Shown: in pieces, positions 7,657 through 53,865 of the stretch | Position numbering within the stretch: position 1 is the first letter of the stretch | How the letters are laid out: every line of letters begins with the position of its first letter | Assembly (NCBI GenBank): GCA_014621425.1 | Contig: JAANBB010000044.1 | Span: 1 to 64,000, forward strand | Reading direction: 5' to 3' | DNA: 64,000 nt | Origin: Cylindrodendrum hubeiense | Lineage: Eukaryota; Ascomycota; Sordariomycetes; Hypocreales; Nectriaceae | Program-made: the position numbers and the translations under genes | The notes under the pieces: model-generated | What the model saw: only the letters and a program-made list of their open reading frames with translations | What the model was told of the DNA's origin: nothing | Databases searched by the model: none

Positions 7657-8689
7657 TCTATATCATCGGAATCTATTTGGTCCTTGGACAATCCTTCAAG
7701 ATTATACAGGGACTATGATGTTACATGAGGGAGTTCCAGCCGATGTATTGCTTACATAAATCCAAGTTCTAGCGGTACCTCCTAAACAGTAGTCTAATCC
7801 CAGGATAATGTGACAATGTCGAGAAAGCGCCGGCCAATATCGTTTGTGATATTTGAAGCCATAGCCGTGACAAATACAGCCTATTTTGAAGGTTTCCAGA
7901 GTCAGAGGTATTGGAATCATGGAGGATAATTCAAAACATTGGTCTGCGATTGAGTAGTATGAAGCCATATGATTGAAGGCGTGTTCCGCTGTTGGTGTTT
8001 GATGAGTACCTGATAATAGCGACCTGTTAATATACTACATGAAAATTAAAGAACCCAACACCCACCAAAAACGACTTATGACGCTGGTAGAGTGAATTTG
8101 CCTATACATGGTTGACACACTAGGGGAAAGAAGCAAACGAAGGCTTCGTAGAGGAAGAACATGATCAAACAAATTACAGAGTTATGCCTCAATTTCAGCA
8201 CTACAGATTATAAAATGAAGAATATTTCAGAGGCTTTAATGTCAATATGGCGCCATCTACGGCTCTGCGCATCATTGAAATTTCCACCCAAGAGCTGAAC
8301 CCCAAAGCCCCAACGCAAAGAGGCTACTTATTCAAACTGGCAAGTAGTAGAGACCCGGGGCTGACATTTGCAAACCTGGAGGCCTAGATTACCAGATACA
8401 GTGCGACGGCCGCGATAGAAAATGATCGAGGCCCTTTCGCTGTTGTTGCGAAGCCGACCGTGCTGCCATGGGCCACCAGGGGATTTTTACTGTTGGATCT
8501 GAGGAGTGGAGTGCATGCAGATGGTGTGTAGAAGCTCTTGATTTCTATCTAACTGAGGGCTTGGAAAAGCTCTTATATACAAAGATGCCATTTTTATCAT
8601 AGGGACTATGATAAGCACCTTGAAACTGAACCCAAGGGATCCGGGCCTTTAAGATCGGGCGGCTAGATGCGACACTTGCCATGAAGTCG
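7657..8689. other. Intergenic region holding only a small disrupted ORF
   Basis: This is about 1 kb between two 3' ends (regulator on plus, NMT1-like on minus). Apart from the interrupted reading frame at 8247-8531, I see no conserved gene, RNA or repeat. Local composition is moderately AT-rich. Confidence 0.5.
8247..8531 (+). pseudogene. Unrecognised small reading frame with one in-frame TAG
   Basis: From ATG 8247 a coding-like frame of 46 codons ends at TAG 8385-8387. It continues in the same frame for 47 more codons to TAG 8529. The text on both sides looks like protein (KAPTQRGYLFKLASS; DRGPFAVVAKPTVLPWATRG), with balanced composition. TAG may replace CAG, a C to T change at CpA, so this could be a nonsense-inactivated gene or gene fragment. 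I do not recognise the family. An unseen intron is an alternative, but no good donor/acceptor pair removes the TAG. Confidence 0.35.
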
Positions 8690-25931: not shown

Positions 25932-27452
25932 ATGGGAGAGATGGCCCTCAGTGATGTCGGCCTCACCGACCTCTTCAAGACGACGCTCGAAACTTGGGAC
26001 ATAGCTGATGCTGGTCGAGGCTACGCCCAAGATTTCAACTTCCTGCGAGAAGGGCTTGATAGCCAGCGGGCTATGTTCTTGATATGGGCAGAGCGGATGG
26101 GGTTTGAATCTTCCAGAGGATACAACAAGGAGCTCGACCGTGAGCTTATGGTAGTTCCTGTGAAGAACAATCTAAGCCACCTCAAACTCCTATTCTCCAA
26201 TACCGACAAACTAAGCGACAATTATGGCCTCAAAGTTTACCAAGAAACATTCGTGGCTGGCGCTATTGGCCAAGTTGGAGCAATGTTGACTTACCTTGTC
26301 ACGGGGAAAGACCGCAACCAAGCCGCGTTTCGAAGAAGATACGTGAAGTTCCTGCAAAACTTCGACGCTCAGCACCAAAAAGTGCCTCCCCTAGACGCGA
26401 CCAGAACGACGAATCAGCAACAGCAAAAGGAGACATCCATCTGGCGGGTCAGTAAATGGGCCATCGAAGACGAGACTAAGTTCAAACAGTTGGTACATGA
26501 CGTTGGACGTGTGGTCCAGGACCTCAAGGACCTCACGAAGCACATAAAAACGCCGAGGTCGACGGAAGAAATGGCTGTCGAATTCGTTGGTGAGATTAAT
26601 GAGATTGACTTAGCTATGGTTGAATTGGTCGCCGCAGACAACGCCGCCATATTGTCCGGTGCTGCAAGTATCCGACTACGTGCCATCGAGAGTCGAACCA
26701 CACATGATCACAATTTAAGAAGTGGCGCACCGACGTGCGGCACTGCAATGACGCGCAATGCTCATATCGAGCCCTCTCGCGAGAGAAATGGGTTGAGTCC
26801 GACAGAGTTCATCCCGATGAACGTCAAAGACATTGCAGATGAAAATGCAGCGGCTTGTGCAGCCCTTGTAAAGAGACTCGAGACTGAGGATCCTAAGATC
26901 TTTAACAGGTCATTTAAGCAATGGCGAATGATCCGCCCGTTGAAGGAAGTCAGAGACGTGTCAACATGTGACAAAGATCCTTGGTTTACCTTCAAACCTA
27001 TCTTCGAAGACCAGCTTGATAAGTTCATCGGCACCTTTCAGGGACCAAAGGACACGCCATACGAGGGTGGCATATTTCACGTGCGAGTCAATCTCGATGA
27101 AGGGTACCCGATGGAGCCGCCTAGCATGTGGTTCTTGACAAAGATCCTGCATCCCAACATCAACGAGGTGGGAGCAATCAGCCTGGATTTACTGGAGAGT
27201 GAGTGGAAACCCACCTATTCAATCTCGTCGCTCCTAGTTGCTGTGGCATCATTGACGGGCAGTCCCAACTGGGACAGCCCATTGTCAACCAGCCCCGCAG
27301 TGCCTTTCAGCAATGATCACCATGCATTCGAGATTGAGGCGACGCGGTGGACGAAGTTGTATGCAACGGGGCATATCTTTAATCCAGGGGAGCGGTCGGA
27401 TGGGTTTTCGAATACTACAGATCAAGCTATAACGAGAAGAGGCAAGAAATAA
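25932..27452 (+). CDS. HeLo domain fused to catalytically altered ubiquitin-conjugating (E2) fold
   Basis: Intronless 506-aa protein. The N-terminal part (about residues 4-220) matches the HeLo helical fold of HET-S-type cell-death proteins: DVGLTDLFKTTLETWDIADA, GRGYAQDFNFLREGLDSQRA, a helix with RVSKWAIEDETKFKQLVHDV. After a polar linker, residues about 302-475 form a UBC domain: FQGPKDTPYEGGIFHV, YPMEPPSMWFLTKILHPNIN, SPNWDSPL. The HPN motif is intact (407-409), but the position eight residues after its Asn, where E2 enzymes carry the thioester Cys, is Ser417 (GAISLDLL). It may therefore be a pseudo-E2 (UEV-like) or form oxyester links. HeLo domains can permeabilise membranes when activated, so a regulated death effector is inferred. 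An upstream in-frame ATG at about 25887 would add 15 residues. Confidence 0.85.
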   Translation: MGEMALSDVGLTDLFKTTLETWDIADAGRGYAQDFNFLREGLDSQRAMFLIWAERMGFESSRGYNKELDRELMVVPVKNNLSHLKLLFSNTDKLSDNYGLKVYQETFVAGAIGQVGAMLTYLVTGKDRNQAAFRRRYVKFLQNFDAQHQKVPPLDATRTTNQQQQKETSIWRVSKWAIEDETKFKQLVHDVGRVVQDLKDLTKHIKTPRSTEEMAVEFVGEINEIDLAMVELVAADNAAILSGAASIRLRAIESRTTHDHNLRSGAPTCGTAMTRNAHIEPSRERNGLSPTEFIPMNVKDIADENAAACAALVKRLETEDPKIFNRSFKQWRMIRPLKEVRDVSTCDKDPWFTFKPIFEDQLDKFIGTFQGPKDTPYEGGIFHVRVNLDEGYPMEPPSMWFLTKILHPNINEVGAISLDLLESEWKPTYSISSLLVAVASLTGSPNWDSPLSTSPAVPFSNDHHAFEIEATRWTKLYATGHIFNPGERSDGFSNTTDQAITRRGKK

Positions 27453-29775: not shown

Positions 29776-31590
29776 CTATACTCCAAGCTTTGTGTGATTC
29801 ACGATTGCTTCTAGCTCCATAATAACGCCATTGTATACTTCCTGCCTGAAACCATCCTCATCTAGACCTTTTGGTTCTGTGCATCCTATGCAGCGCTCGA
29901 CAACGGCCTTATAAATCGGGTTGATTAATGCTACTCTCCGTTCTAGTAGCCTGTGTGCGGTAATTGAATCTCGGATAATCCCAAGGTCATCGCCTTCATA
30001 TTCCTTCTCATCTGATTCTCGCAGCTCATCGAGCGTGGAGCCCAGGATAATCTCCAGCAGTAAGATTCCAAGCGCAAACAACGTCGGGTTGCTCATCAAC
30101 ATGTGTTGGGTTCGAGTGGCAGTAAAATTGGTTGCTGGAGACGGTGGAGATGAGCCCGAAAGACTCCTTAAGATGAAGGGGTGCTCATACGAGGGGATTC
30201 CGCCCCGTCTAAAAAAGTGCACGTTTTTGCGCGTGAGCCCTTCAGGAAGCCACGGTGTCTTGCTCAGCTGCAGAACGCTAGAAGCAATAACAAGCGCAAG
30301 CTGGACTTTCTCCACTAAAGAGATCAGCGGCCGCAATCCCTTTTTGCCGCCGAGGACATCATGTAAGCTGATTATCGACCAGGCGTCGCTGTTCGCTGTC
30401 GTCCCCAGCGGGTATACCTGGAAGTGTCGGCCGATGCACTGTTTATCAATCAGGTGTCCGTAAGAGACCGGATGTGTTTTGTGGCCACTTTTCATGGCCA
30501 TGCAAAGGTCGAGAGGCAGTCCCGTGGGTTGTCCGAAGCCATGAGGCATTTGGACAGACGCAATGCCTGTAACAGAGCGCGTGAGAATGGCGATGCCGTT
30601 TTTGATATCGGGCGGTGGTTTCGCATGACTGACAAATGATAGTTTCTCATCAAGAGAGAAGGAGACAGCTTTGATCTTTTTTGGCTCGTTAGCCATGGAG
30701 TATGGCTTGGGCGGCTCCTCGATCGAAGACGTAGCCGTCCTAATATTGAGTTCATCCCAGAACCGCTTACTCGCTGGACCATCTGCCATTTCAAAGGAAA
30801 TAGCGACTTTAAATTGTGCATTCCGCAAAATCTTCTCGTCATCGCCTATGTGCCCCACGTCAATGAATCGCGTCGCCAGCTCAAAACTAATATCGTGCGA
30901 GTCGGTGCAGAGGATGCTGGAACAAAGCGCTCGATAAATACTTGTAGAAAGGTCCCGCAAAACTGTGAAGAGTTTGCCTCGAGACTGCTTTCGTCGACTG
31001 GGCTCAAGAGTCAGGCTTAGACGCGCGAAGCCTTCGAGATCGCTTATTCCCCTGGAAATGGTATCAAGAGCATCCTGGTAGTCCTTCCTGTTCAAACGGT
31101 GCAGTAATTTCTTGAATTCACGCGTCATCTTTCCTCGCTTAACCCATTCAACCTGTACCATGTCAGCGAATACTCTAATGAGGGAGGTTGGTCAACATTG
31201 ACTCGCCTGTCCATCATGTGTGACGTGTACTCTCAGGCGTTGCATCACACTTTCAAGCGCTTCGCCCACTTCCACGACAGTTTCTTTGAATGCGTCATAC
31301 GATTTCCAGAGCCGCTGCCGAATCTTATCATTGGTCTCCTTGGCTTGCCAAAGTGGCCCAAATGGGTCCTGTAGCATTGGCTCGATATCTCGTTGGGGTA
31401 CCACGTCGTTGATCAGCTGATCGCAGACATTATAAAGCTTTGCCCGCTCCGTAGTTAGTTGGCGGTTGAGGCTCTTCAGTTCCGATGGAGCCTTGCCCCA
31501 ATCGCGCATAAGGCTGCAGTATGCGTCTAATGCTGAGACGAGGAGGGGGATGGTCCCCAGAGCTATACCGACGACCTCCAATCCAGACAT
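29776..31590 (-). CDS. DUF7580 domain protein with helical N-terminus
   Basis: Exons 31207-31590 and 29776-31152 (minus) join in phase to 586 aa. The N-terminus MSGLEVVGIALGTIPLLVSALDAY type start is a hydrophobic amphipathic helix followed by a helical bundle, a layout shared with fungal NLR-associated N-terminal domains. The C-terminal half is a DUF7580 (kinase-like) region: HFQVYPLGTT, ISLHDVLGG, RVQ-like helix LALVIASSVLQLSKTPWLPEGL, and a late LFALGILLLEIILGS segment. These resemble kinase C-lobe helices, but no HRD or DFG motif is present, so no catalysis is expected. The only workable intron is GC-AG (GCGAGT donor, 31153-31206). It is divergent from the C2H2 gene, 380 bp away. A role in allorecognition or defence is inferred from family distribution. 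Confidence 0.8.
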
Positions 31591-50579: not shown

Positions 50580-53500
50580 CTAAAAGTTCCACTGCTGACA
50601 CCAATTCTTGAGAAGACTGGGCGTGATTTCACCCAATTTCTCAACTGTTGGACTCCGAGTTTTGGTCCTCTCCATACTAAACGTTACATGCTGTAGTCCA
50701 GCTTGATTAGCGGAAAGCATGCCACGGTACGTATCAAGTAGCTTGACACCCGGATTCTTGCTGATATCGGCGCTTACGAGTGCGCTCTTCTCCAACCTCA
50801 AAATCCAGTCTTCGAGTGTGGTGATTTGCTGAATCCTGTCGCTGTAATAGCTCTTCACAGCAGCCGTCAACTCGGACCACATAACGGTGACTGGATTGAC
50901 CGCATGGAAGTAGCCTGAAATCTCAGATACAGGGACTTGGACTGTCACGCCAGAAACGTCCAGAATGAGTTCAGCAACATCCTCAATTGGAATCCAGTCA
51001 ACTACCTGACTGGGGCCGATATGATCAGGCAAGGCGCCGATGTGTACTGAACTGGCGATAAGGCTGGGAAGAAATTCTTGGCGGTTCCATGCGCCCTTGG
51101 TGCTCCTGGGGCCTGCAATCTGTCCAACTCGGATCGACGCGGTCGGGATCCCGGATTGCTGTGCGGCTGCATCCAAAATGAGACTGCCAATGTGCTTGGA
51201 TTGGCCGTATCCCATGATAGGTAGTGTAGAATCAATGAGCTGATGCTCAGGGACTGCGTCAGCGACCGTCCAGCCGCCTGCAGTACTGATACTAGACAGG
51301 AAGATGATCGGTACAAGTCTAGCAGCTGCGCCTGAAAAGTCAACGAGGTGTCGTACACCACGAATGTGCGGCTCAAACGAAGCGACGCTAATGTGGAAGT
51401 TCACAGGCCATGCGTTGTGGATAATTCGATCAACGGTACCCAGCAACTGATTGTACTTGTCCTGGCCGAGGCCAAGATCTGGTAGCGATAAATCCGCTTC
51501 CAAGAACTCGACCTTGGAGAAGTCGGTGCCCAGACCGCGAGAAGCACAGGCTGAGGGCTGCCGGGACTCGCCGCCATCCTTGCCTCGGTTAAGAGCAATG
51601 ACCTTCTTGACTGCCTTGATATTGCAAAGGCGGTCGAGCAAATATGCTCCGAGGGAACCAGTCGTACCAGTAACAACCACAGTCTGCCCGTCGTTGAGTG
51701 GTTCCGGCTTGTTTGGATTCGAAACCGGCAGAGCGTCGGTGTACCTTGCGAGGATTTCTTGGAATGCCTTAGCCTGCCGCTCAGCCTCAAACTCGGCGCT
51801 GATTCCACCTTGCTTAGCAGCCGCGTACACGTATGTGGCCAACTGCCGCGGGGTGGGGTTATCGTAGACGATGCGAGGCGTCATAGAGTCATCACCAAGC
51901 TTGACGCCAGCATCCATGAGACCGATGCTGAGCATCTTGACGAGGTTGATAACTTGCAATGAGTCAAAGCCAACAGTGAATAAATCTGTTTCGATTTCAA
52001 AGCCGTCGCTTCCGGCGAGGCTTGAAACCAAGTCAATGATGCATTTTGCCAGACTTTCTTCATTGGTAAGATCCAGCTCGACAGAGTCGAAGGGGCCCTT
52101 TGTCTCCGCATTCTGGTAGATTGATTCAATCTCATCTGCGAATAACTTCACGGTTGCCGCACGAAGTGGAGTGCCCTTCGGTGTTCGCAAGAATTCCTTC
52201 CCAGTAGGCGCAACCGCGACTAACCATCGCGCGATTTTTCCATGCGCGACAGTCTCCGCGTTGGCTTTCTCCACGAGAGACCACACGTCTGCAATCAACG
52301 CCTCAGCTGCAGCTTCATTTTCGCATGGCGTTGTGGGCTCCAGAATCAGAGCCGGTTGGAACCTCTCCTGGCCTACCACCAGCGCACCCTTCACGGAAGG
52401 ATGACCGACGATGCGCTCTTCTATGGACACTGGGTTGAGCTTCTCTCCATTCGAGAAGACAATGACGTCGTCAATTCGACCGCAATACATCCAGTGATCA
52501 GGAAGCGTAGGGTGAGGCTTGTACAGATCCTTGGTCGACCACTCGTCCAACTCGGGGAATGTGTAAAACAAGGCCTGCAGACCGGGTTCTCTGTCTTTGG
52601 TATCCTTTCGACGAACAACAAGTTCATAAAGCCCGTCTTCCGATTCAACTGGACGCCATTCACATCCCATGGCTTCGCTGTTGAAGATAAAATATTGCCA
52701 GTTCTCCATGTTAGATTGGAAGTGGAGCACATAAGGGCAATACCTGAAGCCAAGTTAGCGACCTCTCAACCAATAACCTCAAGCTCGGTACATACTCTGT
52801 CGCTGCAATTCCATTGCTAATAACAACACCGTTGTCGATTAGAGTTTGGCCAGCCCTCTGTCCGAGATTGCCTACGTAGGTGATTAACGGTCAACCTTTC
52901 ATACGCCATCCTCCAATTCACTTACCTCCACCGAAGGCCACGAGGTTTAGCTTCGCCAATTCTGCTATGCCCTCACTTTTCGTGGAAAGTTCCTCCAAAA
53001 TCACAGGAGGCATAAGAGTTGATTGAGCACCTGCATGCTTCAAACATTCAATCACCAGGTCTGAGCTGAGAGGTCGGTCTGGGATACCCAAGGCGATAGT
53101 AGTCCCGTACGCCAGCGTCAACTTAAGCAACAGTACCATCCCCGCGGTATGGAAAAGTGGCATTGGAATAAACATCCTCTCAGCTACTTCTCCCCAAACA
53201 CGGGTCAAGAATTGCCCACCTTGATGATTGGGGAGAGTGCGCAAAGAGTCTGTGACGGCAAAGGTCCCCTGTTTCTGAATAACGGGCTTTGGCATGCCCG
53301 TTGAACCGCTGGTGTGGAACACAAGTGATGGGTCCCATCTGCCTTCATCAAATGTCCGGGTGTAAGGAAATGGTGGACAGGTGGCTGCCACCATAACATT
53401 GGCACTTGGAACCTCAACTGTCCGCATCTTGCGTTCCCCGACCCATGCCTTGATCATGGGGGTAAAGATATCAGCGTGCCAAAAGAATTGGCAGTCAGTC

Positions 53501-53865
53501 GCCTCCAGGAGGTGTTGCTGTGCTTCTTTGCTGTTGCGCGGCGATAGAAGAAGCGCCTGGTAACCAGCCTTCATGCATCCCAGGACCATGATGACGTACC
53601 GGACATCCGTCGGGCCAATGTACGCAATCGTTGGGAATGAGCCCTGAAATCCCGGCCCGTATGTGTTTGTGATCTGCCATGCTACAGAGTCAACAGCTTG
53701 GGAAATCTCGCTGTACGTGATGGGCTTCCAGCCGCCACTAGGGTTGCTTGTGTTGGGGACATAGATGAATGGCCGAGAGGGGTCGCTAGCAGCAACAGCA
53801 TCGAGAACGTGAAGCATCAACCGACGTCCATAGTCTGGTTCTGCGTCTAGATCTAATTGGGTCAT
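50580..53865 (-). CDS. NRPS-like adenylate-forming reductase (A-T-R)
   Basis: Activates a carboxylic acid as adenylate, loads it on a carrier domain and reduces it with NAD(P)H to aldehyde or alcohol. Exons 52926-53865, 52796-52871 and 50580-52743 (minus) join in phase to 1059 aa, typical for the A-T-R class. The A domain (about 15-545) has the P-loop FHTSGSTGMPKP, NGIAATEYCPY (A5), MYCGRIDDVIVFSNGEK (A7-A8) and the late lysine in RTPKGTPLR. The T domain carries phosphopantetheine Ser600 in FTVGFDSLQVINLV. The R domain has the nucleotide loop VVVTGTTGSLGAYLLD, LSSISTAGG and the catalytic YGQSKHIGS Tyr/Lys pair. No condensation domain is present. It is divergent from an acyltransferase, suggesting a small biosynthetic locus. 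The acid substrate is unknown. Confidence 0.93.

What the first reader, a model, noticed from the sequence alone, without database searches (positions are those of the whole stretch)
25932..27452. HeLo cell-death domain fused to an E2-like fold whose catalytic Cys is Ser
One intronless gene joins an N-terminal HeLo-type domain to a UBC domain. The HPN motif is intact, but the residue eight positions after its Asn, the thioester Cys of E2 enzymes, is Ser417 (GAISLDLL). I infer either a pseudo-E2 that senses or scaffolds ubiquitin signalling to trigger a pore-forming domain, or an unusual oxyester E2. I know HeLo and UBC families separately; I do not recall this fusion with the Cys to Ser change as a described system.
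Basis: partly seen in the sequence, partly recalled or inferred. Interest (0 to 1): 0.85.

Follow-up and report, generated by a model that had tools for sequence, protein, structure and literature searches.

The report
Fungal HeLo protein with dead E2
A fungus carries a gene that joins a cell-death-type membrane module to a ubiquitin-transfer enzyme; this copy has lost the enzyme's key residue while nearly all the relatives compared keep it, so the interesting thing is the family, not the mutation.

Summary
The intronless 506-codon gene at 25932-27452 (+) joins a HeLo domain (E 4e-28) to a UBC/E2 domain (E 3e-33). HPN is intact and the catalytic Cys is Ser417, codon AGC. The genome is very probably Cylindrodendrum hubeiense.

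The proposed meaning mostly fails. The fusion is an ascomycete family, and 30 of the 32 relatives compared keep Cys there, including the nearest relative and both other HeLo-UBC genes of the same genome. Ser is a derived, copy-specific change. Two distant members lost Cys separately (Tyr, Phe).

The three Cys-less proteins also tend to have the weakest N-terminal hydrophobic segments, the part HET-S HeLo uses on membranes (rank-sum P 0.0004-0.010, post hoc, three events). One Cys-keeping protein is equally weak, and five relatives without HeLo keep Cys.

Best reading: HeLo-E2 proteins resemble MLKL, a membrane module with a built-in and usually intact E2. The window copy is a dead derivative, either a partner or a gene in decay. 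My literature searches found no description of the fusion. What deserves attention is the Cys-bearing family.

The parts
25932..27452 (+). HeLo-UBC fusion gene, 506 codons plus stop, no intron needed
25932..25988 (+). N-terminal segment (residues 1-19), the part expected to insert in membranes; weakly hydrophobic, with two Asp at positions 8 and 13
25944..26606 (+). HeLo domain, residues 5-225
26607..26963 (+). Linker, residues 226-344: helix at 239-258 with the conserved Ser242, Ala244, Ala245, Ser246, then a low-confidence stretch 254-291
26964..27350 (+). UBC/E2 domain, residues 345-473
27150..27158 (+). HPN motif, residues 407-409, intact
27180..27182 (+). Codon AGC, Ser417, at the place of the E2 catalytic Cys
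27276..27278 (+). Codon 449 (Ser), where 27 of 27 relatives have D, E or N; aligned with E2 Asp117 (number recalled)
   Evidence: alignment to Ubc4

Best explanation
The gene is a derived, catalytically dead member of an ascomycete family in which a HET-S-type HeLo domain is fused to an E2 domain that is normally intact at its active site. The family most likely works like MLKL: HeLo is a membrane-targeting cell-death or defence module, and the C-terminal domain controls it. Here that domain is a ubiquitin-conjugating enzyme, most likely acting in cis on the attached HeLo, its oligomer or membrane neighbours. The window copy has lost both the catalytic Cys and most of the hydrophobicity of its N-terminal segment, so it is probably neither a working E2 nor a killer, but a dead partner or a gene losing its function. 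Shown: fusion, folds, Cys in relatives, one clade of UBC-linked HeLo domains, the derived Ser, and weakening at both ends of this protein. Inferred: membrane attack, ubiquitination in cis, control of one part by the other, and the present role of the dead copy.
For: Cys in 25 of 27 other HeLo-UBC rows and 5 of 5 UBC-only relatives. The sister P0002 and same-genome P0009 and C212 have it. The 27 UBC-linked HeLo domains of the tree fall in one starred clade (95/94), apart from HET-S-like and HeLo-DUF7580 domains of the same genome; it also holds P0060, which has no UBC. Three Cys losses on the tree. Cys-less proteins rank among the weakest N-terminal segments: rank-sum P 0.0004-0.010 in 12 scale and window settings, 25 rows. 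HeLo loci of this genome typically carry a second domain within 2 kb: DUF7580 in 8, UBC in 3, NACHT in 3, none of these in 5, of 19. From papers: the N-terminal helix of HeLo is needed for membrane targeting, and some HELL domains sit on kinase or pseudokinase proteins (PMC12881547, passages); the HeLo domain of MLKL is itself K63-ubiquitinated, which redirects it (PMC8816944, abstract); 7 of 9 HeLo genes are induced in Podospora incompatibility (PMC3689799, passages).
Against: No function was measured. The UBC tree does not unite all UBC domains of the family (two clusters), so a single fusion rests on the HeLo tree. P0005 keeps Cys yet has an equally weak N-terminus, and P0035-P0039 keep Cys without a HeLo domain, so the coupling is not strict. 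P0057 ranks only 4th to 9th of 25 on the Wimley-White scale. No NACHT or IBR match lies on the window contig. The window UBC domain has not evolved faster than its sister's (branch 0.36 against 0.47), which speaks for continued constraint.
Confidence: 0.6

Rival explanations
1. In the family HeLo is only a membrane or oligomerisation anchor for a working E2; no cell death is involved. The window copy then lost catalysis and anchoring for want of use.
For: UBC-only relatives P0035-P0039 keep Cys and HPN or YPN, so the E2 seems useful without HeLo. HeLo-UBC genes are not next to NLR genes in this genome.
Against: The HeLo model is a clear HET-s/HET-S fold, and the N-terminal hydrophobic segment is kept in most Cys-bearing rows.
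Confidence: 0.2
2. The window copy is simply in decay: after duplication neither activity was needed, and the frame is open only because the loss is recent. This is one of the two forms of the best explanation and overlaps with it.
For: Cys417, acidic residue 449 and the N-terminal segment are all changed. The HeLo branch is about twice the sister's (0.40 against 0.21). A Cys-bearing paralogue exists in the genome.
Against: 506 codons without a stop. The UBC part is not accelerated (5 changes against 6 in the sister; branches). Its count of broken conserved sites is not exceptional: 5 of 42 in HeLo (ranks 5th of 21, tied) and 4 of 37 in UBC.
Confidence: 0.3
3. One reading: a dedicated pseudo-E2 that senses or scaffolds ubiquitin signals to trigger HeLo.
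For: UBC fold and the residues around the active site are kept (Gly414, Ile416, Asp419, Trp425), and the UBC branch is not longer than the sister's.
Against: 30 of 32 relatives keep Cys. The part to be triggered is itself weakened in this copy. The non-Cys letters differ (Ser, Tyr, Phe), as in loss rather than in a shared new site.
Confidence: 0.08
4. Ser417 is a working or trapping oxyester site: E1 loads ubiquitin on it and the stable conjugate signals or blocks.
For: Engineered C85S UbcH5 takes ubiquitin from E1 as a stable oxyester (PMC9501438 and PMC5012860, passages). The best PDB match, 2gmi_A, also bears Ser at this place.
Against: Other Cys losses are Tyr and Phe, which suits loss better. 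Position 449 is Ser where 27 of 27 relatives have D, E or N, and the N-terminal segment is weak.
Confidence: 0.05
5. Ser417 is an assembly error or a rare allele in the sequenced strain.
For: One base (TGC to AGC) separates it from a Cys codon, and only one assembly was available.
Against: The frame and flanking motif are intact, and the same protein shows a second unusual change at 449 and a weakened N-terminus.
Confidence: 0.04

Closest known systems
HET-S / HET-s of Podospora anserina (HeLo domain plus prion-forming domain)
   Different: C-terminal half is an E2 domain, not an amyloid region; weak N-terminal segment in the window copy. No NACHT gene on the window contig.
MLKL and fungal HeLo/HELL-kinase proteins (HeLo-DUF7580 in this genome)
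   Same: Helical membrane module in front of an enzyme-like domain that may be active or dead; 8 of 19 HeLo loci here have DUF7580 just downstream.
   Different: The second domain is UBC, not kinase-like. In the HeLo tree the UBC-linked domains form their own clade apart from the DUF7580-linked ones.
Ubc13 / Ubc4 / UbcH5 type E2 enzymes
   Same: Closest solved relatives by sequence and fold; HPN kept; Cys kept in most of the family.
   Different: Fused to HeLo; Ser at the catalytic position and at the Asp117 position in the window copy.
UEV and other pseudo-E2 proteins (Mms2, TSG101, AKTIP; recalled, no call)
   Same: UBC fold without the catalytic Cys.
   Different: Here HPN and the surroundings are those of an active E2, and the Cys was lost within a Cys-bearing family. 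UEVs were not put in the trees by name.

Membership tests
HeLo (PF14479) | Pfam profile above its cut-off | tested here: met
   99 bits against 23.2
HeLo (PF14479) | HET-S-type helical fold | tested here: met
HeLo (PF14479) | Hydrophobic N-terminal helix for membrane attack | tested here: inconclusive
   Present in most relatives; in the window copy ranks 1st or 2nd weakest of 25 in all 12 settings. Hydrophobicity is only a proxy.
HeLo (PF14479) | Membrane permeabilisation and cell killing | not testable with these tools
   needs an assay
E2 ubiquitin-conjugating enzyme (PF00179) | UBC fold | tested here: met
E2 ubiquitin-conjugating enzyme (PF00179) | HPN motif | tested here: met
   residues 407-409
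E2 ubiquitin-conjugating enzyme (PF00179) | Catalytic Cys | tested here: not met
   Ser417, codon AGC. The window protein is therefore not filed as an E2 enzyme, only as a UBC-fold protein.
E2 ubiquitin-conjugating enzyme (PF00179) | Thioester with ubiquitin | not testable with these tools
   needs an E1 charging assay
HeLo-E2 family described here | HeLo, linker and UBC in this order | tested here: met
   26 proteins with both Pfam domains precomputed (the window's included) and C212
HeLo-E2 family described here | Intact E2 active site, usual but not universal in the family | tested here: not met
   Cys in 25 of 28 HeLo-UBC rows; Ser in the window. Membership rests on architecture and trees.
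UEV-type pseudo-E2 | Descent from the UEV lineage | not tested
   no named UEV was placed in the trees

The most novel reading that the evidence does not exclude
HeLo-E2 proteins are a ubiquitin-run form of the MLKL/HET-S switch. The fused E2 tags its own HeLo oligomer or membrane targets and decides between killing and clearance. Copies that lost both the Cys and the membrane helix, such as the window gene, are kept as HET-s-like dead partners that join and silence the live paralogues.
Probability: 0.15. Interest if true: 0.85.

Novelty: new variant of a known kind. Interest (0 to 1): 0.5.

Why it matters
HeLo domains are known on amyloid, NLR and kinase-like proteins (passages). A family that ties the same membrane module to an E2 with an intact active site would put ubiquitin transfer inside the executor itself. 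MLKL's HeLo domain is regulated by ubiquitin supplied in trans (PMC8816944, abstract), so the fungal fusion would be a compact and testable version. The natural dead copies offer a ready comparison of which activity matters.

Tried and rejected
Rejected: Ser417 as a family hallmark. Chance match of HeLo: excluded by Pfam, PDB sequence and fold. A HeLo-RBR fusion from P0060 (Fusarium longipes 'ibr finger domain'): its HeLo begins at an internal Met after the IBR part, IBR barely passes (24.6 bits against 24.3) and no UBC is found; most likely two neighbouring genes merged in a gene model, which I could not check. IBR next to HeLo-UBC in this genome: 16 matches, none on C379, C46 or C212. NACHT next to HeLo-UBC: 85 matches, none on C379 or C212, one on C46 about 258 kb away.

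Led nowhere: the whole-protein fold search was filled by E2 chains, so HeLo was modelled alone. The UBC tree did not resolve one origin. Literature on pseudo-E2: 0 papers for the three terms. No DNA of relatives outside this genome was at hand, so no dN/dS.

Rows left out of the Cys count: hits P0021-P0034 and P0040-P0052 (E2s or other proteins without HeLo-UBC architecture, including P0023, which has UBC, a missing 5' end, and keeps Cys in its printed sequence), and P0060 (no UBC). The homologue searches scored only 7995-7996 best candidates each, so the family list is not complete.

Full report
What is there. The frame 25932-27452 (+) encodes 506 residues without a stop. Pfam finds HeLo at 5-225 and UQ_con at 345-473, both far over their cut-offs. 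The HeLo part matches solved HET-s/HET-S HeLo domains by sequence and, modelled alone, by fold. The UBC part matches Ubc13, Ubc4 and UbcH5-type E2s. HPN is intact and position 417 is Ser, codon AGC.

Where it is. P0009, named by its source as Cylindrodendrum hubeiense G7Z17_g1585, is encoded letter for letter in locus L004 of the window's own assembly, and the contig lengths agree (352006 for P0009, 172029 for the window). The organism is therefore very probably C. hubeiense, Nectriaceae.

The family. Three capped protein searches gave 26 proteins with both domains, the window's included. With the same-genome gene C212 and P0016, which lacks the first half of HeLo, that makes 28 HeLo-UBC rows. 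Named sources include Stylonectria, Sarocladium, Fusarium and the lichen fungus Xylographa (lineages), so the fusion spans at least Sordariomycetes and Lecanoromycetes. Five UBC-only relatives (P0035-P0039) group beside the window protein and P0002.

The residue. Cys is present in 25 of 28 HeLo-UBC rows and 5 of 5 UBC-only rows, that is 30 of 32 without the window. The exceptions are Ser (window), Tyr (P0010) and Phe (P0057). The best tree needs three changes, in all the bootstrap range shown; strongly supported branches alone force at least two, because P0010 and P0057 lie in one poorly resolved group. Cys is thus ancestral and Ser derived. HPN is kept in 31 of 33 rows (P0053 has HPS, P0039 YPN).

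Origin of the fusion. In the HeLo tree the 27 UBC-linked HeLo domains form one starred clade (95/94) that also holds P0060, apart from the HET-S-like and DUF7580-linked HeLo domains of the same genome. The UBC tree is weaker: the family falls in two clusters (99/93 for five rows, one of them P0023 without a found HeLo, and 80/74 for the other 29) that are not joined against other E2s. One origin is likely but rests on HeLo.

Joint weakening. The N-terminal segment of the window protein has the lowest hydrophobicity of 23 rows (0.75; Cys-keeping rows 1.19 to 2.57). With P0010, whose N-terminus is shorter by several residues, and C212 added, the three Cys-less proteins rank 1-3 or 1, 2 and 4 of 25 on the Kyte-Doolittle and Eisenberg scales; on Wimley-White the window and P0010 stay 1 and 2 but P0057 falls to 4-9. 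Rank-sum P is 0.0004-0.010 over 12 settings. This was seen before it was tested, rests on three events, and treats rows as independent. Against it: P0005 keeps Cys with a weak N-terminus, and P0035-P0039 keep Cys with no HeLo at all. Position 449, aligned to E2 Asp117, is D, E or N in 27 of 27 relatives and Ser in the window.

Rates. Against its sister P0002 the window protein is faster in HeLo (branches 0.40 and 0.21; assigned changes 10 and 5) but not in UBC (0.36 and 0.47; 5 and 6). Its breaks at conserved sites (5 of 42 in HeLo, 4 of 37 in UBC) are not extreme among 21 rows. So the dead E2 fold still looks constrained, or the loss is young; the data do not decide.

Surroundings. The nearest other gene with a known domain, 29776-31161 (-), is a DUF7580 kinase-like protein, a domain that lies within 2 kb downstream of HeLo at 8 of 19 HeLo loci of this genome. 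An upstream open stretch, 31195-31590 (-), begins with a hydrophobic segment but has no Pfam match over cut-off. The 19 further ORFs scanned (of 34 of at least 180 aa listed, plus one shorter) gave ordinary metabolic, transport and regulatory genes or nothing.

How it may work. HeLo domains kill through an N-terminal helix that targets membranes (PMC12881547 and PMC10197012, passages). In MLKL, K63-linked ubiquitin on the HeLo domain redirects the protein (PMC8816944, abstract). In Podospora incompatibility 7 of 9 HeLo genes are induced, and domains of ubiquitin-based degradation are enriched among genes induced in both Podospora and Neurospora (PMC3689799, passages). I infer that the fused E2 acts in cis on HeLo. 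The window copy, lacking Cys and much of the helix, should do neither. A stable oxyester on Ser is chemically possible (PMC9501438, PMC5012860, passages).

Novelty. No paper in the library held both 'HeLo domain' and 'ubiquitin-conjugating', the Pfam name with 'ubiquitin-conjugating', or 'HeLo' with 'UQ_con'. Wider searches listed 4, 9 and 10 papers. Of the 10 I looked into four (passages of PMC9815663, PMC3689799 and PMC8778642; abstract of PMC8816944), none describing the fusion; the other six I saw only in the listing. The library lacks most subscription journals, so a description elsewhere is possible. Architecture databases and gene models already contain such proteins unremarked.

Noticed in passing
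window 29776-31161 (-) and 31195-31590 (-): DUF7580 kinase-like gene beside the HeLo-UBC gene; an open stretch just upstream in the same frame starts with a hydrophobic segment like a HeLo-like N-terminus, but has no Pfam match over cut-off.
   Followed up: partly
own genome C212:43323-45064 (L007): A second, divergent HeLo-UBC gene with a likely intron and a long insertion soon after the catalytic Cys.
   Followed up: partly
P0035-P0039 (Fusarium and unnamed): UBC-only proteins of 245-267 aa beside the window protein in the tree that keep the linker and Cys but lack HeLo; either HeLo was lost or the gene models are split.
   Followed up: partly
P0060 (Fusarium longipes): HeLo of this family behind an IBR-type E3 part in one gene model, probably two neighbouring genes merged; if they are neighbours, an E3 beside a HeLo gene is a lead.
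   Followed up: partly
P0010: Cys replaced by Tyr, and the N-terminal hydrophobic segment is shorter than in its relatives by several residues.
   Followed up: partly
window 50583-53865 (-): Adjacent frames with AMP-binding, phosphopantetheine and Male sterility/NAD-binding domains, looking like one NRPS-like reductase gene.
   Followed up: no
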